From the NCBI RefSeq assembly GCF_022808915.1, contig NZ_JAKZFS010000001.1, forward strand, positions 248,001-312,000: a DNA stretch of 64,000 nucleotides. Direction: 5' to 3'. Positions 1 through 11,751 of this stretch are shown here, piece by piece. The position numbers and the translations under genes were made by a program. This stretch comes from Fundidesulfovibrio terrae. Lineage in GTDB: Bacteria > Desulfobacterota > Desulfovibrionia > Desulfovibrionales > Desulfovibrionaceae. The notes beneath the pieces are model-generated. The model was not told the origin of the DNA, ran no database searches, and worked only from the letters and a program-made list of their open reading frames with translations. The stretch's first letter is position 1. Each line of letters opens with the position of its first letter.

Positions 1-1349
1 GCGCGAGTTCTTGCCCAGTTGCGTAGGGCTTCGATTTCTTCACGCATTGTCCTTGAGAGAGGTATCACTGAGTGAAATGCCGTTTCCATGTCTGTGAACA
101 TGGATTCGCGGCATATCTGCTCAATCTCAGCTCCTGAATAACCGTTGAGGTTGGCAGCGTATTCGAGAGGTATCTTTGTACCGTATCGAGCGTTCATGAT
201 CTTGAGGATATCACGTCGCTCTCTGAGGCTTGGCAGGTCCACCATGAATATGGCATCAAACCGGCCAGCTCGTATCGTTTCGGGAGGGAGCTTGGTGATG
301 TCGTTGGCAGTCGCCATGACGAACACGGGTGAGGTGTTCTCCTGGAGCCAAGTGAGCAAATGGCTGAACATGCCAGAAGTAGTTCCAGCATCGGTCTCGC
401 CAGAGCTTTTGACTCCTGACAGGGCTTTTTCGAGTTCATCAAGCCACACGACGCACTCGCCAAATGACGAGATGATCTGTGTTGCCTGACGAATCTTCTT
501 CTCACTCTCTCCGACTAGGGAGCCCTTCAAGGCTCCGATATCTAATCGGATCAATGGCCAACCGAGTATTGACGCGGCGGCTTTGCAAGAGAGACTCTTT
601 CCTGTGCCGGGTATCCCGACGAGTAAGAGGCCTTTTGGCCTGGGTAAGCTTTCGTTACCAGGCGTAAACGCCTTCGCACGGGACTTGATGTAGGCTTTGA
701 GCTGACTCAAGCCTCCGACATTAGACAAATGCTCAGGTTCCCAGACTTCGAGAAGCCCTGATTTTCTGATCAGTTGCGCTTTCAGTTGGGCGATGATGTT
801 TGAGGAGAAGTAGCGGCGTTTGACGAGTGATAGGGCGTATGCGCATTCGGCTTCGTATTCGGTGAGTCCACGTGCCAGCCGAGCAGCTTTGCGGTTCGGT
901 CTGACATTCAGTGGGTTGCCGAGTTCATTCTGGAGTATGTAAAGGTCTTCAGTATCAGGAAGTGGAAGGTCAAGAACTGTAAATATAGATTTCAGTTCTG
1001 GACGCATTTGGATTTGAGGAGAGATCACGACGAGGCAGTTGCCTTTCGCTTTCCACGTATCAGATCCGTTTTGTATGCATTGAATCACCTCAACGGAATC
1101 CGTGAACAAGTGTAGATTGTGAGCTAACATAACTGCATCTTGAACAGTGTCCAACCAACGTAGCATCTCAACAGGGTCGCGTACTTCCTCCAGGATCTTT
1201 TGACTACCAGCGAGTCGTATGCCACGCTGGCAGTCCCAGGCGAAGAATCGCCAGTGACCGTCAAATGGGATGATCTTTTCGGCTCTTGCTGGCTCAGTTG
1301 TGAGCAGAAGCAATGCCGGAAAACCTGCCTTCAAGTATTCCTGTAGCAT
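1..1349 (-). CDS. Ycf46-like AAA+ ATPase (3' end cut by window edge)
   Basis: An open frame of 449 codons runs from ATG at 1349 off the left edge, so the C-terminus is missing. The start is supported by a GGAGG Shine-Dalgarno about 8 nt upstream. Residues 1-200 form an N-terminal domain of the Ycf46 kind. The AAA+ core follows: Walker A GIPGTGKS (246-252), Walker B VVWLDELEK (D304, E305), sensor-1 Asn in MATAND (349) and arginine fingers in IRAGRFD (360, 363). Ycf46-type proteins are predicted cytoplasmic ATPases of poorly known role. GC is lower than in the core genes right of 11.7 kb, so it is probably island cargo. Family assignment is by motif and layout; the substrate is unknown. Confidence 0.85.
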   Translation of the reverse strand, partial: MLQEYLKAGFPALLLLTTEPARAEKIIPFDGHWRFFAWDCQRGIRLAGSQKILEEVRDPVEMLRWLDTVQDAVMLAHNLHLFTDSVEVIQCIQNGSDTWKAKGNCLVVISPQIQMRPELKSIFTVLDLPLPDTEDLYILQNELGNPLNVRPNRKAARLARGLTEYEAECAYALSLVKRRYFSSNIIAQLKAQLIRKSGLLEVWEPEHLSNVGGLSQLKAYIKSRAKAFTPGNESLPRPKGLLLVGIPGTGKSLSCKAAASILGWPLIRLDIGALKGSLVGESEKKIRQATQIISSFGECVVWLDELEKALSGVKSSGETDAGTTSGMFSHLLTWLQENTSPVFVMATANDITKLPPETIRAGRFDAIFMVDLPSLRERRDILKIMNARYGTKIPLEYAANLNGYSGAEIEQICRESMFTDMETAFHSVIPLSRTMREEIEALRNWARTR

Positions 1350-1746
1350 GCTGAAAACCTCCATATATGTAGTTACAATACAATTTCTATATATGCAGGC
1401 AGAATGTTAAAACTCTTCAAAGCAATGATTGCGCGCGCAAAATAGTAACTTGCACATGCGAGTGTTCAGCAAAGGATTTCCTGGTGCGCCAGGAGACAGA
1501 AAAGATGTCTGAGCTCGTGAGATCAGGAGCAGAGGCTTCTGAGATCTAAGAGAAAGGGATTTCCTTGGGAGCCAACGCGAGCTTCCGATCAGGTCTTGAC
1601 GGGGCACATGATCCCGGAGACACACCCATGTTGTGGGTAAACGAGACCGTCTGGAGACGGTACGCCATGTCGAGCTGGCATGGTGTTGGAAATGACCGTA
1701 GGATGCCTTTGGGAGGACATCCTGGGATCAAAAAGACGGGAGAGAT
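1350..1746. other. Gene-free, hairpin-rich intergenic stretch
   Basis: No convincing long gene is seen. The first 60 nt carry the leader and SD of the minus-strand ATPase. From about 1479 to 1735 short inverted repeats follow one another: TCCTGG/CCAGGA (1479-1494), GATCAGGAGC/GCTTCTGAGATC (about 1521-1556), ACCCA/TGGGT (1624-1638), ACCGTC/GACGGT (about 1646-1661) and AGGATG/CATCCT (about 1700-1723). A 40-codon ORF (1628-1750) ends in an ATGA overlap with the next gene but has no good SD. The stretch could be a structured RNA or leader; this is inference from base pairing by eye. Confidence 0.4.
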
Positions 1747-2283
1747 ATGATCTACCAGCTACACGTGCAGCTGCTCGGGATAACCCCGCTGATTTGGCGC
1801 AGGATTCAGGTGCCGGGAGAAGTCTCCCTATTTCGACTCAATCTGCTCATCCAGCGAGCTATGGGCTGGAAGAATACTCACTTGAGTGAGTTCAACATAG
1901 ATAGCCGTAAATACGGTGCGACAGAACAAGACCACTTTGCAGAAGGTGTTTACGAATTCAAGAAATTCAAGCTGTCTCAAGTTGTGACAGCTGCTGGGCA
2001 AAGCTTTCTGTACGCATACGACTTCGGAGATGATTGGCTACACAAAGTTGTTGTCGAGGATATTTTGGCGCGCGAAAATGAAGTCAAATATCCTCTGTGT
2101 ATTGCCGGTGAACGAGCGTGTCCACCTGAAGACGTTGGCGGGATATACGGATACGATGACTTCCTAGAAGCCATCTCCGATCCAAAACACGAGAGCCATG
2201 CAGACTACAAGACTTGGATCAAGAAGTTTGACCCGGAAAATTTTGACGTGGACAAGGCGACTAAAGCGATGCAGCGGAGATAG
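1747..2283 (+). CDS. Plasmid pRiA4b ORF-3-like protein
   Basis: 178 aa. The sequence matches the pRiA4b ORF-3 family (PF07929) pattern: an N-terminal strand then PLIWRRIQVPGE, a helix with IQRAMGWKNTHLSEF, and the hallmark YDFGDDWLHKVVVE near residues 90-105, followed by a Cys-containing segment (CIAGERACPPED) and GGIYGYDDF. The family is common on plasmids and mobile elements and its biochemical role is not established. An SD-like GGGAGAG lies just upstream of ATG 1747. Its location beside the integrative element fits cargo status. Confidence 0.85.
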   Translation: MIYQLHVQLLGITPLIWRRIQVPGEVSLFRLNLLIQRAMGWKNTHLSEFNIDSRKYGATEQDHFAEGVYEFKKFKLSQVVTAAGQSFLYAYDFGDDWLHKVVVEDILARENEVKYPLCIAGERACPPEDVGGIYGYDDFLEAISDPKHESHADYKTWIKKFDPENFDVDKATKAMQRR

Positions 2284-2350
2284 CCAATACCAGTGTTATT
2301 TTATGCGATAAAAACCCTTTGGTTTAATCTCTTAAACAGCAGGTGCCTTT

Positions 2351-2722
2351 ATGCCCCGCATATTCTTCGCTATCGGTTCAATCTTTGCTTTTATCTCTGT
2401 CGGCGCAGGTGCTTTGGGTTCCCACGCGTTGAAGGGGAAGCTTACTCCAGATTTGCTGCCTATCTTTGAGATAGGAGTACGGTACCAAATGCACCATGCA
2501 TTGGCACTCATCGGGGTGGGTCTGGCATGCGCGAAATGGCCAAGCACTCTCATGACCGCTAGCGGATGGTTATTCATCGTTGGAACAGTATTTTTTTCCG
2601 GCAGCATCTACCAGCATTGTTTGACAGGAACAAGGTGGCTTGAAATGATCACGCCCATTGGCGGAAGTCTTTTGATGTTAGGTTGGATATGTGCGGCTGT
2701 CGCTGCTTTGCGCGCAAGTTAG
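2351..2722 (+). CDS. DUF423 family small membrane protein
   Basis: 123 aa, almost wholly hydrophobic, with four predicted membrane segments (about 5-25, 45-63, 68-88 and 98-119). The N-terminal GAGALGSHALKG and the central RYQMHHALALIGVG followed by TVFFSGSIYQHCLTG are characteristic of DUF423 (the E. coli YgdD family). It is an inner-membrane protein of unknown function. AGGTG lies upstream of the ATG. The gene is oriented with the preceding pRiA4b-like gene, 67 bp away, and may share its transcript. DUF423 genes are usually chromosomal, so this could mark older chromosomal DNA or captured cargo. Confidence 0.88.
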   Translation: MPRIFFAIGSIFAFISVGAGALGSHALKGKLTPDLLPIFEIGVRYQMHHALALIGVGLACAKWPSTLMTASGWLFIVGTVFFSGSIYQHCLTGTRWLEMITPIGGSLLMLGWICAAVAALRAS

Positions 2723-3191
2723 CAGCCTAAATACTTTTCCATAAGATCAGCAGCCTCACTGGAATATATGGTTTAAATTTTAATGCCTTTGACTTCACTG
2801 TTAAGCGCCCCTCAATTAGTGGCAGTTAATTTCGCGCACTAGAACTGCTTTAAAATATATGCCACATTTTGATAGTTTGAAATACTTTCTCGCTGAAAAT
2901 GAATTCTAAATTTGAAAGCTCGAATAAATCTACCTTTTGTCACAATAGAAAAAGGTAGGCTCTGCCAACCATCCAAAATTTGTGACAAGTAAAAAGACGG
3001 GCGACAATTCGCCCGTCTCTTCTTATATAGAGGCCTCAGAATCCAGAATCGATTGTATTTTCAATGGTTTAAACGTTCAGACAGTATTTTTGAATTGACT
3101 AGACTAAAAGCCTGGGAAGCCGCGCCATTCCTTTGATTCCGAGGTTCTCACCTGTTTTTGAATTCGGTCAGAATCCTGAATCGTAGAATCG
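2723..3191. other. Gene-free AT-rich intergenic region between convergent genes
   Basis: This AT-rich stretch separates the plus-strand DUF423 gene from the minus-strand primase-polymerase gene. Apart from the bidirectional terminator at 2991-3025 I see no ORF with an SD, no RNA gene and no long repeat. A short repeated phrase (tcagaatcc, about 3037 and 3168) is too short to interpret. Confidence 0.5.
2991..3025. terminator. Bidirectional Rho-independent terminator
   Basis: A perfect 10-bp stem AGACGGGCGA / TCGCCCGTCT (2995-3004 and 3009-3018) with a CAAT loop. It is preceded by AAAAA and followed by a T-rich tract, so it can stop transcription from both convergent flanking genes. Confidence 0.8.
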
Positions 3192-5108
3192 TCAGTCCTC
3201 CTGGCTGAAACCGACCAGGATGATCTTGTTGGAACGCCCCTCCTTTATCTGTTGAAATCTACCAAGCTTGATGCCTTTTTGAATTAGTCCATTTAATTGT
3301 GACTCCTTAACATTCTCTTCTTCCAACCCATGTTCACGACAGTACGTAGAATATTTTTCTGTTAATATTTTCTGGCTTTCCACTTCACCTCCATTTGCGG
3401 AAAGTACTTTATCTAGAATATGGAGCCGACGTTCTTCAGGGCTTACTTCATGTATGTAGCATCTCAAATCTTTGCCGCGTTTTAGACTTATCGTGCCAAA
3501 CTTTTCAAAATTTGACGCCTTAATGTGTCTCAGCTTGAATAAGTTCTTGTCTTTGCCATCAGCTTTGAACTCAAGAGTGTTTCTCGCCCAGTCACCAATG
3601 GCACTTGCCCCACGGCCACCAGAGTAGTCGGTTACATTGTCTCCCTTGCCGTCATGGTGTACAACAAGAACGTTAGTGTTTGTCAGTGATCCGAGCAAAC
3701 TGAATCTGTCCATGACCTTTCTCATGGCAGTATTTGAGTTTTCATCTTGACAATGAAAACTTACGAGGGGGTCAAACATTACGACATTCACACAATTTGA
3801 TTTGACAGTGCGAACCATCTTGTAGAAGAAAGCGTCGTCCAAGATATCTGCACTTATCATGATGTCGTCGTTCAGTTTTATGAACTGAATATTTTCAACG
3901 TGGCGCTCTGCAATATCATTGAGGCGCATGTTTGTTTGAATTTTATTCTTGATCGCGGCGGCTTTGTTTTCTGACTGGACGAATAAAACCTTGGATGGCC
4001 TCGCAACCTTATACCGATTCAGGAAGCCTAATTCTGTTGGTGCGGCTAGCTCACAGGCAAAATCCAGCGTGAACGTTGACTTGCCGATTCCGTTCTTACC
4101 GAATAGAATCATAGGCTCACACTTCGGCCAGAACCCTTCAACCAGAAACTCAAAGTTATCAGCGTTTAACTTAATATCACCAAGATTCATCGTATCGAAA
4201 ACATCACCTATATCTGCCTTGGCACCTGTTATGTTGCAGTGAATGTAACCAATTGCCTTCTGATATTGCTTGTCGAAGCGATTAAATCTTGATTCTCCTT
4301 TCTCCCGATGCTTTTCGCCAATCGGATAGTTTTCAAATATATCAAATATTTCATCGCGAGAGAATCCGGACCGCACCAACGAATCTATCACAGTCATTTC
4401 ATTTTCAGACCTTTCTCCGTCTGCAAATAAGTTCAACATTTTGCGAAGTGTTTCACCGCTAATACGTGACGTATCAATTGGAGCGATTTTCTTCGGTGCT
4501 GTTGTGGCTTTGGTTTCCCACTTCGGCTTCGCTTGATTCCTTGCCATTTCAAGAAACCATTGAGGTGCTTTTGCCGGGTGAAAGTTTTTTAAGATAGTGT
4601 ATGGCTTTCCAGTGTCTGGATGAACTGAACCGGGGCACATTACGTAGCCACCTATGCCCCTGATGTCGTATGCTCCTGAGTATTCTCCCTTTGCGCTTGA
4701 ATTGTGATACATGTAGCCGTCGTCAGGGTACATGAAATATATATGTAGCCCTTTGTTCGTTTTTACGACGAATGTTTCTGTGGCCATCAACTCTTGAAAG
4801 TTGTCATCCCCCACAAATTTTTTGAATTTATCAATATTATCAACGTCAAGCACAATGACTTTTGAGTAAGGACCGCAAACAATTCCGGCATTAACCCCAA
4901 GGTATTCATCAGAATAATATGGAGCATAGTCAAAGCTTCTTTTATTCCAGCCCCGTTCGATCGCTTGCTTTCCATTTTTAGCGCAGGAAACTAAGTTAAA
5001 GTGTTCTGAAAATTCACGGAATACCGATTCTCTTTTATTGTCATTGCCAGTTCCTCCGCTTGCAATCAAATCTACGATTTCTTGTTTTATAAAGTTGTTG
5101 TTTTGCAT
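3192..5108 (-). CDS. Primase-polymerase / RepA-like helicase fusion (element replication protein)
   Basis: 638 aa from ATG 5108; an upstream in-frame GTG at 5162 would force translation through a stem-loop. The N-terminal about 190 residues are an archaeo-eukaryotic-type primase-polymerase domain (PF09250-like): acidic VIVLDVDN (D88, D90), NKGLHIYF, and CPGSVHPDTGKPY carrying the catalytic His (about 163). A P-loop ATPase domain of the AAA_25/RepA hexameric helicase type follows, with FGKNGIGKST (about 336-344), Walker B VVMFDPL and VLVVHHDGKG. The C-terminus resembles a winged helix. Such fusions prime and unwind DNA for plasmids, satellites and integrative elements. GC is near 40%, unlike the chromosome, which supports transfer. 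Confidence 0.85.
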   Translation of the reverse strand: MQNNNFIKQEIVDLIASGGTGNDNKRESVFREFSEHFNLVSCAKNGKQAIERGWNKRSFDYAPYYSDEYLGVNAGIVCGPYSKVIVLDVDNIDKFKKFVGDDNFQELMATETFVVKTNKGLHIYFMYPDDGYMYHNSSAKGEYSGAYDIRGIGGYVMCPGSVHPDTGKPYTILKNFHPAKAPQWFLEMARNQAKPKWETKATTAPKKIAPIDTSRISGETLRKMLNLFADGERSENEMTVIDSLVRSGFSRDEIFDIFENYPIGEKHREKGESRFNRFDKQYQKAIGYIHCNITGAKADIGDVFDTMNLGDIKLNADNFEFLVEGFWPKCEPMILFGKNGIGKSTFTLDFACELAAPTELGFLNRYKVARPSKVLFVQSENKAAAIKNKIQTNMRLNDIAERHVENIQFIKLNDDIMISADILDDAFFYKMVRTVKSNCVNVVMFDPLVSFHCQDENSNTAMRKVMDRFSLLGSLTNTNVLVVHHDGKGDNVTDYSGGRGASAIGDWARNTLEFKADGKDKNLFKLRHIKASNFEKFGTISLKRGKDLRCYIHEVSPEERRLHILDKVLSANGGEVESQKILTEKYSTYCREHGLEEENVKESQLNGLIQKGIKLGRFQQIKEGRSNKIILVGFSQED

Positions 5109-5121
5109 TGTTTTGCTTTTC

Positions 5122-5149
5122 AAGCAGCCGAGTTCCAGCCCGGCCGCTT
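5122..5149 (-). promoter_or_regulatory. Stem-loop directly upstream of the primase-polymerase/helicase start
   Basis: On the minus strand AAGCGGCCGGG pairs over 11 bp (two G-T) with CTCGGCTGCTT around a 6-nt loop. The 13-nt gap to ATG 5108 has no normal SD. A matching arrangement stands before the paralogous gene at 5918, so this is a candidate translation-control or attenuator element. Confidence 0.5.
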
Positions 5150-5294
5150 TTTCCCCAGTCACCTAAACCAGGAAGTCGACCTCCGATTAGTTGATTTTGT
5201 ACAACAGTATGCTGTTGTCTGCGGCAAATATTTATACCTCTTGGAATGTTTTCTACTACAGTTACGGTCCCTAATTTATGTCCTATCGCCAACA

Positions 5295-5918
5295 CTATTG
5301 GAGTGATGTGATGTTAATTCCACCGTCGCTGCTCGTGCTTTCACCGCTCATCAAACTTAGCAACCAGCCTGGAGCCTGAGCAGGTCGAACGTTGTTTAGT
5401 ATTGTGTATGGTTCACCTGAGACTGGGTGTATCGATCCAGGACACATGACGTATCCTCCAGCCCCGATCACTTCAAAAATATTTTTGTTGTCATGGTTTT
5501 TTACTATTGAGTTTCCGCAGATACGACCTGCACTCGGATATTTAAAGTAGAAATGAAATCCTTTGTGCGTTTTGACTATAAAAGTATTTAGCGCCACAAA
5601 TTGTTTGTATTTTTCTATTCCGATATATTTTTCAAATTCTTGAATATCTTCAATGTCTACAACAATAACATTTGAAGCGGGACCGCAGGCAATTCCTGCA
5701 TTATTCCCCATAAATTTTACTGGCTCGTACTTTTCTCTTTTATTACATTTTCCACTCCAGCCTTGTTCAACTGCTTGCTTGTCATTTTTTACGCACGCTA
5801 TCATTGAAAATAGCGTTGACATTTCACAGAATACATATTCACGTGTCACATCGTTTTTTGTATTGCCTCTGTTAATAAGATTAAATGCGAGTTGTTTTAC
5901 AAACTTATTTCTTGCCAT
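5295..5918 (-). CDS. Stand-alone primase-polymerase domain protein (paralogue without helicase)
   Basis: 207 aa. It aligns over its whole length with the N-terminal domain of the downstream fusion protein: both start RNKFVKQ / NNFIKQE-like, then CVKNDKQAVEQGW, GNNAGIACGP, NVIVVDIED (acidic pair), KTHKGFHFYF, CPGSIHPVSGEPYTIL and RPAQAPGWLL. The primase-polymerase motifs are intact but no helicase domain follows. It ends about 20 residues after the domain in a Ser/Gly-rich tail, so it looks like a duplicated single-domain enzyme or a truncated copy. It is transcribed with the fusion gene (187 nt apart). GC is even lower, and its leader has the same hairpin layout. Confidence 0.75.
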   Translation of the reverse strand: MARNKFVKQLAFNLINRGNTKNDVTREYVFCEMSTLFSMIACVKNDKQAVEQGWSGKCNKREKYEPVKFMGNNAGIACGPASNVIVVDIEDIQEFEKYIGIEKYKQFVALNTFIVKTHKGFHFYFKYPSAGRICGNSIVKNHDNKNIFEVIGAGGYVMCPGSIHPVSGEPYTILNNVRPAQAPGWLLSLMSGESTSSDGGINITSLQ

Positions 5919-5929
5919 ATTGAGTTTTG

Positions 5930-5956
5930 AAGCATCCTTTTCAGATTTGGATGCTT
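5930..5956 (-). promoter_or_regulatory. Stem-loop directly upstream of the stand-alone primase-polymerase start
   Basis: On the minus strand AAGCATCC pairs perfectly with GGATGCTT around an 11-nt loop. The 11-nt gap CAAAACTCAAT to ATG 5918 lacks an SD. The layout parallels the stem-loop at 5122-5149. Confidence 0.5.
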
Positions 5957-5968
5957 ATTCTCTAGTTT

Positions 5969-6076
5969 TTAGACTAGTGAACCTATCCCCTTATTCTTCT
6001 TAATGGATTGCTGGCCGCAGCAGTCTTTAATATTCTTTTCACAATGGATACATTTTTTCTCAACTTTGTTTTGCAC
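5969..6076 (-). CDS. Small Cys-rich, possibly zinc-binding protein
   Basis: 35 aa from GTG 6076, chosen because AGGAG lies 7 nt upstream. A longer frame from GTG 6193 (74 aa) has no good SD at its start. The product has CIHC at residues 9-12 and CC about seven residues on, a spacing that could bind zinc, and a Lys/Asn-rich tail. I recognise no family. It is AT-rich, and transcription would run into the primase-polymerase pair. It may be a small regulator or may not be translated. Confidence 0.35.
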   Translation of the reverse strand: MQNKVEKKCIHCEKNIKDCCGQQSIKKNKGIGSLV

Positions 6077-6587
6077 TTCAGATCTCCTGTTTTTATTTTG
6101 CGGAATGTGCACCAGCCGCAGATTTTCAACGAAGTAAAATTCGTCTACACCTCCTCTTATCTCTTTATAGCCTGAGAAAAATAACTTCTGCACATTCTCT
6201 AGCGAGACTGCGTTGTGCTCAATTCAGATTTTACGTGACGTCTTGTTCTTTAAATTCTGTGGTCAGTGGGTGCTTCTCGTCAGAAGGCTTACCCTCCATG
6301 AGCCCTTAAAGGACCTCAAGACGAGTTCAACCCTGCCTATGCCAGTCAGGATGCAACACAGCCCGAATATGAGCCACAGCTTAGTTGTTGCATTTCAGTT
6401 GGTTAGCGCTACGCGAAGCAACATGGTCGATGCGGGGTGACATTGCGACCCCATATTGGTGGCAACACTCTTGAATCATTGTACGTCTGTGGGCGTTGGC
6501 GAGAGGGATACCAACAGAAAAGGGACCGGTCGCCCAGTCCCCTCCCCATGCCCGAGGGGCCCCCGGCCCCCCCCCGATGGCGGAAGG
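6077..6587. other. Gene-free stretch upstream of the AT-rich primase genes
   Basis: About 500 nt joining AT-rich DNA on the left to GC-rich replication genes on the right. No ORF with coding character is seen on either strand. It holds the terminator at 6517-6542 and a run of nine C near 6570. A promoter for the minus-strand genes to its left may lie here but no clear -35/-10 pair stands out. Confidence 0.45.
6517..6542 (-). terminator. Probable terminator downstream of the RepA-like gene
   Basis: Read on the minus strand, GGGAC pairs with GTCCC across a 10-nt loop and is followed by TTTT. It lies about 45 nt past the stop codon of the RepA-like ATPase. Confidence 0.5.
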
Positions 6588-7673
6588 CTACTGCTCGGTC
6601 GTCGTCGCCCCTTGGGTTACGGTGTATTTGTCGGTGCGCTTGCCTGGAGCTTTGACGACAAGTCCCTGATCCACCATTGTTTTCAGCATATTCCCCACGT
6701 TTGAGGCAGATTTTCCGGTCGCGGCGACAATCTCTCTAAACGCCAAGGGTTCGGAAGACGCCATGAGCACCCTGTAGACCTCAGCCTGCCCCGGTTTACC
6801 TAGAAGATCGACTCCTGCGATCTGCGAGTCCTCGATTCTCCAGACCCCTTTGTCCAGCCGAAGGGACAATGAGTCATCCTCGACGTCACGCCCGGAGATC
6901 ATGAGGTTTGCACACTGACCTTCTCCATCGCCAGTCCGGTCCAGCATGAGTAGACCGTCAGCACCGCCGGAGACGGCGTTCGTCCCATACAGTGCTTGCT
7001 TCCAGTTCTTCGATCTGGCGGTCTTCACCGTGTGGTGGATGACCAGAAGCGAGACACCCAACCTGTTCGCGACCTGGCTCATTTGTGCCATAACTTGGTA
7101 CTGGAAGGCGTAACTCTGTTTGACGCCCGCGCCCAGGAAGCACCCGAGGGTGTCGATGACCACGAGCTTTACACCCTCGATCTGCGGCACTAGATTTTCG
7201 AGGTGTTCAAGCCCCCGATGCTCGAAGTCAGGCCACCGGTAGTGGAAGTGCAGGTTCGACAGGTCGCCCTCGCCGCCGCTGGTTTTCTGGAGCAAGCGAG
7301 CCCTGAGCCGTCGCTCGGTATCCTCATACGTGATGTACAGCACCTTGCCCGCGTTGGCCGCGTATCTGCCAAGGAAAGGTGTCCCGCTGGCAACAGCGCT
7401 AGCGATATCCAATGCGAGGTAACTTTTCCCCGCTTTGGGCGCTCCTCCGAGTATCGAAAGCCCTACTGGAAGAACCCCGTCTATTACGAACTCCAACGGC
7501 GATAATTGCGATTCCATGATAGCTTGCGCAGTCACCAAGCCACCCAGGATTTCGTGGGCAATATCGGGTAGCGGTTTTGGCGAGAACGGGTTTTGGGGCG
7601 CTACAGCACCCGTTTCAGTCGAACTTGAGAACATTGAGGCAAGGTCATACGATCCGGTTTTGGAACCGAACAT
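6588..7673 (-). CDS. RepA-like hexameric replicative ATPase/helicase (AAA_25)
   Basis: 361 aa. AAGGAGG lies 9 nt upstream of ATG 7673. Layout: disordered N-terminus (1-55), RecA-fold core with Walker A GGAPKAGKS (76-84), YEDTERRLRARL, Walker B VVIDTLG, LLVIHHTVK, GTNAVSGGADGLLML and SGRDVEDDS, then a C-terminal winged helix (about 300-345). This is the RSF1010 RepA-type helicase family used by plasmids and integrative elements to unwind an origin. It differs in GC (about 57%) from the primase genes next to it, so the module is mosaic. The gene at 7798-8853 upstream is a diverged relative. Confidence 0.85.
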   Translation of the reverse strand: MFGSKTGSYDLASMFSSSTETGAVAPQNPFSPKPLPDIAHEILGGLVTAQAIMESQLSPLEFVIDGVLPVGLSILGGAPKAGKSYLALDIASAVASGTPFLGRYAANAGKVLYITYEDTERRLRARLLQKTSGGEGDLSNLHFHYRWPDFEHRGLEHLENLVPQIEGVKLVVIDTLGCFLGAGVKQSYAFQYQVMAQMSQVANRLGVSLLVIHHTVKTARSKNWKQALYGTNAVSGGADGLLMLDRTGDGEGQCANLMISGRDVEDDSLSLRLDKGVWRIEDSQIAGVDLLGKPGQAEVYRVLMASSEPLAFREIVAATGKSASNVGNMLKTMVDQGLVVKAPGKRTDKYTVTQGATTTEQ

Positions 7674-7753
7674 CGCCTCGTACCTCCTTGTGGGGTTTGT
7701 CGGCGAACGTCTTCATTCATTCATGACGTTCATACCTGCCGGGCGATTTGATA

Positions 7754-7788
7754 AACGGGTCGGCCCGGATAACCGAAACCGACCCGTT
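7754..7788 (-). terminator. Rho-independent terminator between the two RecA-fold genes
   Basis: A 10-bp perfect stem AACGGGTCGG / CCGACCCGTT is followed on the minus strand by TTTATC. It lies just past the stop codon at 7798, so the two ATPase-like genes need not be co-transcribed. Confidence 0.7.
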
Positions 7789-7797
7789 GTTGTGGTT

Positions 7798-8853
7798 CTA
7801 GGCGTTGGCCTTTGCCGCGTAGGTCCCCTTGCGGAGGCTCACGACCTTGCCCTTATCCTTCAAGGACTTGAGCGCGCTATCGATCTCGCTCTTGAGCAGG
7901 TCGGTCGAGTTCATGATGTCGGACTTTTTGGCACCACCCGGGCGCGACTTGAGAACGGTCAGGACCTCGTTCTCAGACGTGGTGGGATTCACCGTGACCT
8001 CGACCCACTTGCCGTTGTCCAGATGCAAGTCGAGCGAGAAGCCTTCGGAGGAAATGCTCACGGTCGGGACATTGTTCTCGTCCCTCGTGCCCGTGACCTT
8101 GAATACCGGGGAGCAGAGACTGACCCCTTTGAGGTCCTTCAGGAACGTATTCTGGTTCGGGATGTTGGTGTCCATGATGGCCACCAAGGCGATGTGATTG
8201 CTCACACCGGCGTTGTGCAGAGCCAGAATGTCACGCTGAAGAGCCGACTTGGTCTTGCTCTTCTCCCATTCCGGGAGGTTGCCGAGCAGGTTGTCGAAGA
8301 AGATCATCTTCAAGTTGGGGTTGTTCTGGGCCTGGTTACCGATGAAGGTCGCGGGATCACCCTCCTTGAGGGTCATGGGGCTATCGACGTAGGGTCTAAA
8401 GTCGACATGCAGGCTTTCGCTCGCGTCATTTGGCAGATGGGTGAAAACTTCCACCCACCGGTCCCTATCAAACAAGAAGCGAATGCCACCCTGGATGGTA
8501 TCGAACTTGTTGAACATGGACTCACCGGCGTGGACGCTCTGGCCCATGAGCGGGAAGGTTTCCACTCCCGGGTTGAGCGTGTTCGCCGAGGTCACGGCCG
8601 TGTTGAACACCATGATGGTGAGACCGGTGTTGATGAAGCCTTCGATCACCGGTTCCTCACGGGTCGATTCCTCGTCCTGCTTCGGAGCAGACGCCCCGAA
8701 AAGAGTGGCGATCTCCACGGTCGTGGTGTTGGAGGCTTCGTTCTCCTCGTTTTCGCCGAGCGTGGTGCTCGGGTTGGTGGTGGGCATGTTGTCCTGTTCG
8801 ACCGGAGTCGAATCGGAGGTGGCCTTTGTCATTTCGAAGTCGGTGTCTTGCAT
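7798..8853 (-). CDS. RepA-like RecA-fold protein lacking Walker A (element regulator or pseudo-ATPase)
   Basis: 351 aa from ATG 8853, picked for GGAGG with 5-nt spacing; an upstream in-frame GTG has no SD. Residues 1-75 are acidic and disordered. The rest keeps the order of a RepA/AAA_25 ATPase: a strand GLTIMVFNT where Walker A should be (no GxxxxGK[ST]), a Walker-B-like KMIFFDNLLGNLP, HIALVAIMDTN at the HHxxK position, a ligand-strand region and a C-terminal winged helix (LKSEIDSALKSLKDKGKVV). ATP binding is probably lost, suggesting a DNA-binding regulator or a structural subunit. The relation is inferred from motif order only. Iteron array 8941-8987 sits in its promoter region. Confidence 0.6.
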   Translation of the reverse strand: MQDTDFEMTKATSDSTPVEQDNMPTTNPSTTLGENEENEASNTTTVEIATLFGASAPKQDEESTREEPVIEGFINTGLTIMVFNTAVTSANTLNPGVETFPLMGQSVHAGESMFNKFDTIQGGIRFLFDRDRWVEVFTHLPNDASESLHVDFRPYVDSPMTLKEGDPATFIGNQAQNNPNLKMIFFDNLLGNLPEWEKSKTKSALQRDILALHNAGVSNHIALVAIMDTNIPNQNTFLKDLKGVSLCSPVFKVTGTRDENNVPTVSISSEGFSLDLHLDNGKWVEVTVNPTTSENEVLTVLKSRPGGAKKSDIMNSTDLLKSEIDSALKSLKDKGKVVSLRKGTYAAKANA

Positions 8854-8940
8854 GATATCCTCCATGCTTTGTGTGCTCGTGACAACCACGACCACTTGCA
8901 AATGAGGATACAACCGGCAGGAATAATTAGAAGTATGTCT

Positions 8941-8987
8941 CAACGGTAGGCGTCAACCTCTACGGCAGACGTTAGCATCTACCGTAG
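8941..8987 (+). repeat. Array A: three 19-bp iterons
   Basis: Three imperfect dyads with the core CTACnGTAG lie exactly 19 bp apart: CAACGGTAG (8941), CTACGGCAG (8960) and CTACCGTAG (8979). The central monomer reads GTCAACCTCTACGGCAGAC. The 19-bp period keeps the sites near one helical face. They lie 88 bp upstream of the Walker-A-less RecA-fold gene. Array B at 10295 shares the spacing and core. Confidence 0.75.
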
Positions 8988-9049
8988 AGGGTACCTTTCG
9001 AGGGGGCGAAACGATCGGCTGAATCGACTTTACTCTGAAGAAATGTGGC

Positions 9050-10264
9050 TCATTTTTTTGATGTAGCTTCAATCTTAGCAACATCATATGAATCATATTC
9101 AATTTCTTTTTCCAATTCTTTTTCGTCGAGAGTAATTCCGCTGATGTCGAAGTATTTCCCTACAGGCAGGTACTGCACCATTGAACAATTTTTTTCATAT
9201 TCTGGACACGGGCAAACATAGACCGTCCTTCCTACGCAGCCTGTCGCTCCATAAATAAAATCTTTGGGTGCAACTCGTTTCAATTCAGATGCAATTTTTT
9301 TGAGCTTTGGCTGTTTGTCAAAAATTGCAGCCCAAATAAGTATAGCCATTTGTTTGTGGAGCAACTTGCACCCATTCTTCCATGCTGGGTCAGCATACTC
9401 AAACAAGTGTTTGTCGAATTTTGTTGAGGCTTCCTTTTTTTGACTTGAAGTGCAAATTTCAGATCGCATCCTGTCGGTTAGCGGTTTGGTCACTCGATCG
9501 TCTGAAAAGTGCCCAGCGAACATAACGGCTTGATACAAAGCCCCTAATTCAAAAAAATACTTAGCGATTTTTGCAGTTGATTCTTCCTTGGCAAAATCTT
9601 CTTCTGCGAGACGAATTAATTCTTTGGCATTGAAATAATGGTGTGCGTATTCGACTTGAACAGACATGGGCGTTGGCCAGTTTTTAGTTTTAGAAGCAAG
9701 TTCAGTTAAAAAAGACTGAAGAGCAAAATACTTCGTATCTGCCTTGCAATCTTGCTCTTTAAATTCTTTGAGTAAGTCTCTAAGTTTATTTTTCCCGCCG
9801 GGAAAATCCAGTCCATGGCGATTTGCCAAGGAAACAATGCCCTCAACGTCTAGCCCAAGCAGTTCATCTAGATGTTCTGTAAATGTTTTCGGAAAGTCTT
9901 TATGGTTACACAATTCAAACCAAGACTTCACAGCATTCAAACATTCCCCTGCTGTTTCACCTTTCAGTAATTTTCTTTTAAAACTCTTTAGTCGAGTAAC
10001 CTTGTTGTCTAGATTGTCAAATTCACCTATCAAATTAATTGATTTCTTCGCAAAATTAAAATTGTAAACAACTTCGTCCAAAATACGATTTATATGCGGG
10101 GACAAATCCTCTTCACCAGGTTTTCCTTCTGCCTCGTTCATTGATTTGGCGAACGAACCCAGCAATAGTTCCCTTTCATTTTCATTTAACTCGTAATTTT
10201 CGAGTCCTTTTTTAAATAAATCTAACACTACTTCTTTTGTATTTTTCCCAGACTCTGCGCTCAC
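9050..10264 (-). CDS. Protein of unknown function, AT-rich, between two iteron arrays
   Basis: 404 aa. I do not recognise a family. It is predicted soluble and almost entirely helical, Lys/Glu-rich, with no signal or membrane segment. The one distinctive stretch is near the C-terminus: GATGCVGRTVYVCPCPEYEK with a further NC, a Cys cluster (CxC-x6-C) that may bind metal. GC is about 38%, well below both neighbours, and the gene is bounded by the two iteron arrays, so it looks like separately acquired cargo. Array B overlaps its promoter region (31 bp upstream of the start). A defence or regulatory role is possible but unsupported. Confidence 0.65.
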   Translation of the reverse strand: MSAESGKNTKEVVLDLFKKGLENYELNENERELLLGSFAKSMNEAEGKPGEEDLSPHINRILDEVVYNFNFAKKSINLIGEFDNLDNKVTRLKSFKRKLLKGETAGECLNAVKSWFELCNHKDFPKTFTEHLDELLGLDVEGIVSLANRHGLDFPGGKNKLRDLLKEFKEQDCKADTKYFALQSFLTELASKTKNWPTPMSVQVEYAHHYFNAKELIRLAEEDFAKEESTAKIAKYFFELGALYQAVMFAGHFSDDRVTKPLTDRMRSEICTSSQKKEASTKFDKHLFEYADPAWKNGCKLLHKQMAILIWAAIFDKQPKLKKIASELKRVAPKDFIYGATGCVGRTVYVCPCPEYEKNCSMVQYLPVGKYFDISGITLDEKELEKEIEYDSYDVAKIEATSKK

Positions 10265-10294
10265 AGCAAAACTCCTTTTCTCGAATCCCTGGTC

Positions 10295-10341
10295 CTACCG
10301 TAAAGGTCAACCTCTGCTGTAGACGTCCACCTCTACCGTAA
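10295..10341 (+). repeat. Array B: three 19-bp iterons in a divergent promoter region
   Basis: Cores CTACCGTAA (10295), CTGCTGTAG (10314) and CTACCGTAA (10333) are again exactly 19 bp apart. The middle monomer GTCAACCTCTGCTGTAGAC matches array A at most positions. The array fills the 109-bp gap between the AT-rich gene (starting at 10264, minus) and the excisionase-like gene (starting at 10374, plus), so a bound protein could control both. Confidence 0.75.
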
Positions 10342-10373
10342 CCATCATTCTTCTGTTTTTTCAAATAGATGCG

Positions 10374-10781
10374 ATGTTCCACCCCATGAAGGACATCGAA
10401 CCCGCAAGCTTCAATTCCAACCCGACCTGTGAGATACTCACTGTCGAGGAGGCCGCTCAGTTCCTGCGCAAGAGCCCTAGCTGGGTCTACAAGCGTTGGC
10501 AAGAATTGGGCGGTGTGAAGCTCGGGGGTTCTCTGTTTTTCCCAAGCAAAGAGGACCTTTATGAGCGTCTATTTCAAAAAAGGCAGGGGCTGGCGCTACG
10601 ACTTCATGATCAACGGCAAGCGGCACACGGAAGCCTGGTTCGAGACAAAGCTCCAGGCAAAACAAGCCGAAGCCAAAAGACGAGAGGAGGTGGAAAAGAC
10701 GGTCTTCATGGCGACGGAGGAGGTGACCCAAACCGACATAGGCTTTTTGGAGCTGGTGAACCGCCGTCTGGATCACGTTAA
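10374..10781 (+). CDS. Excisionase-like HTH (MerR/HTH_17) protein overlapping the integrase
   Basis: The first about 65 residues are a classic HTH_17/excisionase domain: ILTVEEAAQFLRKSPSWVYK, then LGGVKLGGSLFFPSKEDLYERLF. Such proteins steer integrase toward excision or repress the element. The frame stays open for 70 more codons inside the integrase gene and gives a low-complexity Arg/Gly-rich tail that reads like an out-of-frame shadow, so the biologically used end is uncertain. ATG 10374 has no strong SD; ATG 10389 is an alternative. Array B lies just upstream and is a likely autoregulatory site. Confidence 0.65.
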   Translation: MFHPMKDIEPASFNSNPTCEILTVEEAAQFLRKSPSWVYKRWQELGGVKLGGSLFFPSKEDLYERLFQKRQGLALRLHDQRQAAHGSLVRDKAPGKTSRSQKTRGGGKDGLHGDGGGDPNRHRLFGAGEPPSGSR

Positions 10782-11634
10782 AGCCTACAACTCCGATTCG
10801 CACTACCATGCGTATCTCTTCATGGCCCGAAGATGGGTCAAAAGATGGGAGAGCTTCAAGTGTTCGGAACTCAGTCCGAAGATGATCCAAGATTTCTTGT
10901 TGGAACGAAAAAAAGTATCTCCTTTCGTTGCCAACAAGGACCTTCGGTATCTCAGGGCGACAATCAACTTTGGGTTGCGGAAAAAATATATTGAGTACAA
11001 TCCAACGGAAGAACTCGAATTTTTTCCAGTAAACAAAAAGCTCAAGTATGTTCCACCGCTTGAAGACATCGAGAAGGTCATTTCCGTGGCAGATCAGGAT
11101 ACGCAAGACTACCTTCGCACCATCCAAGAAACTTTGGCGCGGATGGGTGAAGTAAACGGAATGCTCTGGGAAGATGTCGACCTCGCAAGGAGATTCGTGG
11201 TGTTGTACACCCGGAAGAAACTCGGTGGCCACCGCACACCGAGAAAGGTTCCCATGACCGACTGCCTTTACGCAATCCTTCGGAGGCGGTTCGAGTCCAG
11301 GGACGAATCAAAGCCTTGGGTTTTCTGGCATCGCTACTGGAGCAGGAAAGAGAGCAAATTCCTGGTCGGTCCCTTCGACGATAGGAAGAAGATTATGAAG
11401 ACATTGTGCAAGAAGGCCGGTGTGCGGTATTTCCGGTTTCACGCCATCCGCCATTCGGGTGCGAGTGTGATGGACGACCAGAACGTTCCGCTCGGAGCCA
11501 TCCAGCGAATACTGGGGCACGAGAACCGGAAAACGACCGAGATTTACTTGCACAGCATGGGCAGGACGGAACGAGAGGCAATGGCGGTGTTCGAGCAGTC
11601 TCGAAAAATTCACACACAGATTCACACACACTGA
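10561..11634 (+). CDS. Tyrosine recombinase / site-specific integrase
   Basis: 357 aa. ATG 10561 follows AGAGGA at about 5 nt and lies inside the excisionase-like frame. N-terminal arm-type and SAM-like core-binding regions (1-150) precede the catalytic domain. That domain shows Arg in LARMGEVNGMLWEDVDL, the HxxR box in FHAIRHSGAS, LGHENRKTTEIYLHS with the nucleophilic Tyr, and a His-rich tail IHTQIHTH. It catalyses integration and excision of the element. It points toward, and ends 42 bp from, the 3' end of tRNA-Phe, which is the expected attachment site. A terminator follows the stop. Confidence 0.93.
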   Translation: MSVYFKKGRGWRYDFMINGKRHTEAWFETKLQAKQAEAKRREEVEKTVFMATEEVTQTDIGFLELVNRRLDHVKAYNSDSHYHAYLFMARRWVKRWESFKCSELSPKMIQDFLLERKKVSPFVANKDLRYLRATINFGLRKKYIEYNPTEELEFFPVNKKLKYVPPLEDIEKVISVADQDTQDYLRTIQETLARMGEVNGMLWEDVDLARRFVVLYTRKKLGGHRTPRKVPMTDCLYAILRRRFESRDESKPWVFWHRYWSRKESKFLVGPFDDRKKIMKTLCKKAGVRYFRFHAIRHSGASVMDDQNVPLGAIQRILGHENRKTTEIYLHSMGRTEREAMAVFEQSRKIHTQIHTH

Positions 11635-11636
11635 AA

Positions 11637-11668
11637 AAGGGGCTAGGGACTTTTTGCCCTAACCCCTT
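11637..11668 (+). terminator. Rho-independent terminator after the integrase
   Basis: AAGGGGCTAGGG pairs with CCCTAACCCCTT (one mismatch) around an 8-nt T-rich loop, three bases after the integrase stop codon. It lies between the integrase and tRNA-Phe, so it can insulate both convergent genes. Confidence 0.7.
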
Positions 11669-11675
11669 GATTTCG

Positions 11676-11751
11676 TGGTGCCGAGGGACGGAATTGAACC
11701 GCCGACACGGGGATTTTCAGTCCCCTGCTCTACCAACTGAGCTACCTCGGC
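11676..11751 (-). tRNA. tRNA-Phe(GAA), attachment site of the integrative element
   Basis: 76 nt including an encoded CCA. Acceptor stem GCCGAGG / CCTCGGC, D-arm AGCTCAGTTGGTAGAGC, anticodon stem GGGGA / TCCCC with loop CTGAAAA (anticodon GAA), and T-arm GGTTCAATTCC. The 3' end faces the integrase gene, as expected when an element integrates into a tRNA 3' end and regenerates it. No second copy of this 3' end is seen to the left in the window. Confidence 0.95.

What the first reader, a model, noticed from the sequence alone, without database searches (positions are those of the whole stretch)
8941..10341. Two arrays of three 19-bp iterons flank an unknown gene in the element
Cores at 8941, 8960 and 8979 and at 10295, 10314 and 10333 all fit CTACnGTAG-like dyads at an exact 19-bp period, with shared flanks (GTCAACCTCT). 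Array A is upstream of the Walker-A-less RecA-fold gene; array B fills the divergent promoter of the unknown gene and the excisionase-like gene. This could be a replication origin with iterons, or an operator pair through which one element protein controls replication, cargo and excision.
Basis: seen in the sequence. Interest (0 to 1): 0.72.

Follow-up and report, generated by a model that had tools for sequence, protein, structure and literature searches.

The report
Twin protein-binding arrays in mobile element
A 24-kb mobile DNA element carries two matching sets of three short mirror-image repeats on either side of one uncharacterised gene, and they look like docking sites through which one protein could control both the copying and the excision of the element.

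Summary
Array A (cores 8941-8987) and array B (10295-10341) each carry three CTACnGTAG-like dyads at an exact 19-bp period. Searched with up to 3 mismatches, the triple-dyad pattern hits 1 of 348 genomes of the order (the own one, at A and B only) and 2 of 395 of the phylum (the other hit is an unrelated repeat). They are the only two arrays above z 4.8 in the element (24.2 kb; its left half lies outside the window).

B lies in the 109-bp gap between the unknown gene and the divergent excisionase-like gene, 30 and 32 bp from their starts. A heads the operon of a P-loop-less RepA paralogue and a RepA-like helicase.

The unknown gene has relatives. In one (L105) it is again flanked on both sides by a repeated cis-element, of different sequence; in two more of five that element lies on one side.

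Best reading: iteron/operator sites for an element-encoded protein that coordinates excision and replication, as in FIB or IncQ plasmids. Origin function and the binder are unproven. No convincing DnaA box was found at the arrays, the closest int/xis relatives lack them, and a general helicase-array link failed out of sample (0 of 16).

The parts
8941..8987 (.). Array A: three dyad cores (8941 CAACGGTAG, 8960 CTACGGCAG, 8979 CTACCGTAG), period 19
10295..10341 (.). Array B: three dyad cores (10295 CTACCGTAA, 10314 CTGCTGTAG, 10333 CTACCGTAA), period 19, in the 109-bp gap between divergent genes
9050..10264 (-). Unknown gene ('unk'), 404 aa, no Pfam/PHROG/NCBIfam/PADLOC match at the thresholds used; C-terminal GCKLLHxQM-like and CxC...C motifs shared with most relatives read
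   Evidence: no families; relatives
7798..8853 (-). RepA/RecA-fold paralogue lacking the P-loop, with C-terminal winged-helix-like region (DUF7343 hit, just below Pfam cut-off)
6588..7673 (-). RepA-like (AAA_25) helicase with intact P-loop and C-terminal winged helix; PDB 1g8y RepA E 5e-6
3192..5162 (-). Prim-Pol + AAA_25 primase-helicase
5295..5918 (-). Second Prim-Pol domain, 45% identical to the first over 194 aa, without helicase part
10374..10781 (+). HTH_17 excisionase-like gene (HTH_17 hit just below Pfam cut-off); overlaps the integrase ORF
10561..11634 (+). Tyrosine integrase
11667..11720 (.). Right att copy in the 3' part of tRNA-Phe (tRNA 11676-11751, -); 50 of 54 bases identical to a left copy at G000:C1:235440-235493 (about -12560 to -12507 in window coordinates)

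Best explanation
The arrays are a matched pair of iteron/operator-type binding arrays for one element-encoded protein. A two-fold symmetric protein (probably a dimer) binds each 11-bp dyad, three in a row. On B it covers the promoters of both the excisionase-like gene and the unknown gene. On A it controls the helicase operon that begins with the P-loop-less RepA paralogue. Excision and replication of the 24.2-kb element are thereby switched together, and bridging of A and B across the unknown gene (handcuffing) may lock the quiet state. Shown: the arrays, their rarity, their positions, the gene families, and a recurrence of the layout in a related element with another repeat sequence. Inferred: that a protein binds, that it is element-encoded, that it represses, and any bridging. 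Candidate binders: the unknown protein (about 0.4), the P-loop-less RepA paralogue or its helicase partner (about 0.35), the excisionase-like protein (about 0.1), other or host (about 0.15). That one array also serves as a replication origin: about 0.35.
For: Array quality and rarity. Mirror-image half-site variants (GCAG on the right of A2, CTGC on the left of B2), as expected for a symmetric protein. B leaves 30 and 32 bp to the two start codons of a 109-bp divergent gap, so ordinary promoters there should overlap it. A lies 87 bp upstream of the paralogue's start codon. In L105 a relative of the unknown gene is flanked on both sides by copies of a 76-bp cis-element. One copy lies just downstream of the relative in L097, L098 and L105; in L098 and L105 a D5 helicase-primase gene follows, in L097 the contig ends first. 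Apart from these, the third L105 copy and duplicate loci, the pattern has no other hit in 934,665 bases scanned. L052 also has a RepA-like gene with a damaged P-loop ahead of a second RepA-like gene, with two perfect 20-bp tandem repeats upstream of the first. [quoted passage not shown] IncQ-3 RepA helicase with three 20-bp putative iterons (PMC7557826, passages); semi-palindromic RepA_N iterons and PLE (PMC7145576, passages).
Against: No binding data. Relatives of unk and xis in L027 and L028 show no array. The repeat sequences of the L105 group and of this element do not resemble each other. No exact DnaA box in 1-11720 and none convincing in the array gaps; AT-rich tracts are short. Promoter predictions do not exceed shuffles (for 8600-10600, where only gap A was shuffled). 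The out-of-sample test of a general helicase-array link gave 0 of 16. The second RepA-like gene of L052 is split between frames as deposited, so that parallel is weak. Structure models of both candidate proteins failed (mean pLDDT 33 and 40).
Confidence: 0.55

Rival explanations
1. Purely transcriptional operators: an element repressor binds A and B to silence xis, the unknown gene and the helicase operon. Neither array is part of an origin and there is no bridging.
For: Both arrays sit ahead of genes. Origin hallmarks (DnaA box, long AT-rich tract) are not evident. In L105 the third copy of the 76-bp cis-element is not beside a replication gene: the nearest gene with a family match is a DUF4405 gene, with a 79-aa ORF between, and the copy overlaps the end of a 127-aa ORF.
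Against: Array A lies beside a primase/helicase set, and two relatives of the unknown gene precede replicative helicase genes. No recognisable repressor was found among the element genes scanned.
Confidence: 0.3
2. Excisionase sites: the HTH_17 protein binds both arrays, autoregulating itself and acting as excision factor.
For: B is 32 bp from the xis start codon; HTH_17/AlpA-type proteins are known to do both jobs (recalled).
Against: Closest xis relatives (72% and 68% identical, L027 and L028) have no array upstream of xis. B is 1335 bp from the tRNA end, too far for ordinary attP arm sites (recalled). A is not near xis.
Confidence: 0.08
3. Insertion scar: the AT-rich unknown gene is cargo that arrived with a duplicated copy of one ancestral array, so only one array is functional.
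For: A and B are homologous (75% over 44 nt); the gene is 38% GC against 57% for the helicase gene and its paralogue.
Against: All dyads are kept in both arrays despite 25% divergence. The gene has relatives at the same position beside xis and, in L105, the same two-sided layout with other repeats.
Confidence: 0.1
4. Chance or decayed repeats without function.
For: B alone is reached by 8 of 200 shuffles in a generic score.
Against: Two arrays with the same core and period 1.35 kb apart; reversed-pattern control 0 in 348 and in 395 genomes.
Confidence: 0.03

Closest known systems
RepFIB / mini-F type iteron replicon (PMC11983097, passages read)
   Same: Two sets of short iterons, one upstream and one downstream of a single gene, with autoregulation by Rep-iteron interaction and predicted handcuffing between the sets.
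   Different: The flanked gene here has no Rep-family match; each array has three dyadic units; no convincing DnaA box; the neighbourhood includes a P-loop-less RepA paralogue and an excisionase-like gene.
IncQ (RSF1010-type) replicon (PMC7557826, passages read)
   Same: RepA-type helicase family (PDB 1g8y hit), a primase, and three direct repeats of about 20 bp.
   Different: No RepC match; Prim-Pol instead of RepB; the IncQ 15-bp conserved site is absent from 1-11720 at up to 3 mismatches.
SGI1 oriV between rep and xis (PMC7433901, passages read)
   Same: Integrated island with iterons next to rep and the xis promoter region.
   Different: SGI1 has four 17-bp iterons whose consensus shows no dyad (my reading), a putative DnaA box and a RepA_C-type Rep.
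PLE of Vibrio cholerae and RepA_N iterons (PMC7145576, passages read)
   Same: Semi-palindromic iterons bound by an initiator that crystallises as a dimer, in an integrated satellite.
   Different: RepA_N initiator and large serine recombinase; no helper phage known here.

Membership tests
Iteron-controlled replicon (FIB/P1/F type) | Three or more direct repeats of about 17-22 bp | tested here: met
   two arrays of three units, period 19
Iteron-controlled replicon (FIB/P1/F type) | Iterons flank or adjoin a gene for a recognised Rep initiator | tested here: not met
   the flanked gene matches no Pfam, PHROG, NCBIfam or PADLOC family at the thresholds used
Iteron-controlled replicon (FIB/P1/F type) | DnaA box and AT-rich unwinding region at the origin | tested here: not met
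   no exact box in 1-11720; one poor 1-mismatch match in gap B, none in gap A; AT-rich tract at most 80% over 20 bp; the left half of the element was not scanned for boxes
Iteron-controlled replicon (FIB/P1/F type) | Rep binds the iterons and they support autonomous replication | not testable with these tools
   needs purified protein and a host
IncQ-type replicon | RepA-type helicase | tested here: met
   AAA_25, PDB 1g8y E 5e-6, intact P-loop
IncQ-type replicon | RepC initiator gene | tested here: inconclusive
   no RepC match in family scans; the adjoining winged-helix RepA paralogue could be an analogue
IncQ-type replicon | Conserved IncQ 15-bp site near iterons | tested here: not met
   0 sites at up to 3 mismatches in 1-11720
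tRNA-integrated mobile element | Integrase next to a tRNA gene with a direct att repeat at the far end | tested here: met
   50 of 54 bp repeat, 24.2 kb apart

The most novel reading that the evidence does not exclude
The unknown gene founds a family of replication/excision switch proteins of integrative elements. Its gene is bracketed by its own binding arrays, whose sequence has diverged between lineages (19-bp dyad arrays here, 76-bp TGTCAC clusters in the D5-helicase elements) while the two-sided layout is kept. Here it works with a P-loop-less RepA paralogue as helicase-loading partner, so one protein decides whether a defence-carrying element stays silent or excises and replicates.
Probability: 0.2. 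Interest if true: 0.65.

Novelty: new variant of a known kind. Interest (0 to 1): 0.45.

Why it matters
If true, it would give a compact, testable control region that couples excision and replication in a defence-carrying integrative element, and would give a role to a protein family with no annotation. It would also ask what a RepA paralogue without a P-loop does ahead of a RepA-like helicase gene.

Tried and rejected
Array relatives in viral contigs: 23 stretches matched two exact dyads at period 19. Nearly all have only that pair; L074 has a third perfect unit and L079 a one-mismatch third, but both lie in GTAGCTAC-like low-complexity repeats, and tblastn of the eight window proteins against the 23 gave no hit at E 0.01. 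The G490 triple hit is an unrelated intergenic repeat.

Relatives of the P-loop-less paralogue: none in genome contigs, viral contigs, plasmids or phages, and among 149 genomes of the family only the own one. A 19% match (E 0.004) exists in L052.

General claim 'RepA-like helicases come with tandem arrays': 5 of 10 helicase ORFs against 5 of 120 other ORFs in the discovery loci, but this was unblinded, and for L052 the upstream paralogue was counted as the helicase. With the criterion fixed in a note beforehand it gave 0 of 16 helicase ORFs and 3 of 108 others in plasmid and phage loci. Of the 18 hits named in that note I fetched 16 (H21 and H32 were not fetched); for L118 the script took an antisense ORF as target, which does not change the result because L118 has no non-coding array at all. 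In hindsight two Vibrio plasmids have 21-bp arrays near the head of the helicase operon (L112, L116), which the criterion does not count. I do not rest on this link.

Inverted A/B similarity extending into AT-rich tracts: tract alone 119 of 1000 shuffles, rejected. Promoter prediction: not above shuffles. Structure prediction: both models unusable, so no fold search was run. The Vibrio 341-aa protein beside the helicase resembles neither candidate.

The D5 gene was seen in L098 and L105, not in L097.

Full report
OBSERVATION. Six dyad cores lie at 8941, 8960, 8979 and 10295, 10314, 10333, at exact 19-bp steps. One is a perfect CTACnGTAG and five carry one mismatch; in the whole 64-kb window only nine sites have at most one mismatch. 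The dyads extend to TCTACnGTAGA with 0-2 mismatches. The weak half-sites mirror each other (GCAG on the right in 8960, CTGC on the left in 10314), which fits a symmetric binding protein. A and B are 75% identical over 44 nt directly and 73% complementary over 45 nt inverted; both alignments beat 300 of 300 shuffles. The flank GTCAACCTCT is shared exactly only by the first spacer of each array.

SIGNIFICANCE. A periodicity scan of the first 13 kb ranks A first and B second. With composition correction A and B are the only arrays above z 4.8 in the element. A generic dyad-array score was reached by 1 of 200 shuffles for A and 8 of 200 for B, each alone, over any of 29 periods. The specific triple pattern at up to 3 mismatches is found in 1 of 348 genomes of the order, the own one, at A and B only. 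In the phylum it is found in 2 of 395 genomes, the second being an unrelated intergenic repeat in G490. The reversed-pattern control gave 0 in both searches. Six other genomes of the same genus were among the 348 and have none.

THE ELEMENT. The integrase (10561-11634) ends next to tRNA-Phe (11676-11751). A 54-bp stretch at 11667-11720 has a copy with 50 of 54 identities at G000:C1:235440-235493, outside the window, so the element is about 24.2 kb, half of it left of the window. Its outer part carries a HerA-like helicase with a SIR2_2 protein, a type III restriction-like pair, and AAA_24, PDDEXK_1, DUF3150 and DUF1257 genes (the HerA and SIR2 antiphage NCBIfam models hit below their cut-offs). 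The inner part carries two Prim-Pol genes, a RepA-like helicase (AAA_25; PDB 1g8y, E 5e-6), the P-loop-less paralogue, the unknown gene, the HTH_17 excisionase-like gene and the integrase.

POSITION. Array B lies in the 109-bp gap between the unknown gene (start 10264, -) and the excisionase-like gene (start 10374, +), leaving 30 and 32 bp. An ordinary promoter for either gene should overlap it. This follows from promoter geometry and would not hold for leaderless messages; the promoters themselves could not be predicted above shuffled background. Array A lies 87 bp upstream of the start codon at 8853 and 62 bp from the stop of the unknown gene. B is 1335 bp from the tRNA end, which speaks against att arm sites.

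THE P-LOOP-LESS GENE. BLASTP against the neighbouring helicase is not significant (E 0.19), though its two best segments are collinear. Profile comparison with eight RepA-like proteins gives probability 92.7 and E 4e-7 over residues 144-348. It has no P-loop motif, while the helicase has GAPKAGKS. L052, from another family of the phylum, has a comparable arrangement: a RepA-like gene with a damaged P-loop, then a second RepA-like gene, with two perfect 20-bp tandem repeats upstream of the first. The second gene there is split between frames as deposited, a P-loop-coding stretch lying just upstream in another frame, so it cannot be called an active partner.

THE UNKNOWN GENE. It matches no family in four libraries. 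A protein search of 149 related genomes found weak relatives in three others. A five-row profile, which finds its own rows by construction, added G088 (5 of 149 genomes including the own; G023 holds two). Five relatives were read. In L027 and L028 (both in G023, both beside relatives of this xis and integrase, 72% and 68% identical in xis) the gene stands divergent to xis as here (for L028 the pairwise match is weak, E 0.007). In L098 and L105 it precedes a D5-type helicase-primase gene. In L097 the contig ends before such a gene could be seen. L028 also shares DUF3150, PDDEXK_1, AAA_24 and type III restriction genes with this element, so it is a relative of the backbone; no RepA-like helicase or array was found in the 17.5 kb read, which starts at a contig end.

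RECURRENCE OF THE LAYOUT. In L105 the relative of the unknown gene is flanked on both sides by a cis-element of exactly 76 bp: two TGTCAC boxes three bases apart and an inverted GTGACA 55 bases on. A third copy lies further upstream; the nearest gene with a family match there is a DUF4405 gene, and the copy overlaps the end of a 127-aa ORF. L097 and L098 have one copy each, just downstream of the unknown-gene relative. A pattern written after seeing these found, in 934,665 bases of loci held (duplicates L099-L104 left out), only these five places plus two hits in duplicate loci L095 and L096. So a repeated cis-element on one or both sides of this gene occurs in four of six members read (this one, L097, L098, L105), on both sides in two (this one, L105), and was not detected in two (L027, L028). 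The periodicity scan also missed the 76-bp elements, so absence in L027 and L028 is only absence of a detectable motif. The 76-bp element and the 19-bp dyads do not resemble each other.

MECHANISM. The most economical reading is that one element-encoded dimeric protein binds both arrays, holds down xis, the unknown gene and the helicase operon together, and may bridge the arrays. FIB plasmids give the precedent for iterons on both sides of one gene, with autoregulation and predicted handcuffing (PMC11983097, passages). IncQ-3 plasmids give the precedent for a RepA helicase with three 20-bp putative iterons (PMC7557826, passages). SGI1 gives iterons between rep and xis in an island (PMC7433901, passages), and PLE with the RepA_N plasmids gives semi-palindromic iterons bound by a dimeric initiator (PMC7145576, passages). 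Binding, direction of control and bridging are inference. Origin function lacks a convincing DnaA box and a long AT-rich tract at the arrays.

WHICH PROTEIN. For the unknown protein: it lies between the arrays, and relatives share the layout while the helicase type differs. Against it: L027 and L028 have the gene and no detectable array. For the RepA paralogue: the array heads its operon, it has a winged-helix-like end, and L052 is a partial parallel. Against it: no wider association of arrays with RepA-like helicases, 0 of 16 in a test whose criterion was fixed beforehand, after an unblinded 5 of 10. For the excisionase: only position. Against it: close relatives lack arrays.

LITERATURE. Eight paper searches were answered. 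Among the papers they listed (some lists were capped), none by its title and abstract start describes such twin dyad arrays in an element of this type; the library holds only openly licensed PMC papers.

VERDICT. The interpretation as an operator or iteron pair is likely; as an origin it is open. It is best filed as a new variant of a known kind (iteron/operator control regions).

Noticed in passing
L105 8232-8307, 9447-9522, 11243-11318; L097 344-419; L098 6581-6656: A 76-bp cis-element (two TGTCAC-type boxes, 55-bp spacer, inverted GTGACA-type box) lies beside relatives of the unknown gene (third L105 copy further off); no other hit in the loci held apart from duplicates.
   Followed up: partly
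L052 5956-8582 and 8639-8678: RepA-like gene with a damaged P-loop followed by a second RepA-like gene that is split between frames as deposited; two perfect 20-bp tandem repeats upstream of the first.
   Followed up: partly
left of the window, L057 7440-20000 (G000:C1:235440-248000): The element continues 12.6 kb beyond the window and carries HerA-like + SIR2_2 genes and a type III restriction-like pair.
   Followed up: partly
10561-10781: The excisionase-like ORF overlaps the integrase ORF by 221 bp in another frame; tblastn matches of xis run into the overlap in several relatives.
   Followed up: no
3192-5162 and 5295-5918: Two tandem Prim-Pol genes about 45% identical; the second lacks the helicase part.
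   Followed up: no
L112 2520-2880, L116 near 2866: Vibrio plasmids carry 21-bp arrays (in L112 ATTTACCGAT-type repeats) upstream of a two-gene operon ending in the RepA-like helicase.
   Followed up: partly
L091 1500-1700 (G490): Intergenic tandem CTGCGGTAGGGCAAACTC-like repeats, period 19, unrelated to the element.
   Followed up: no
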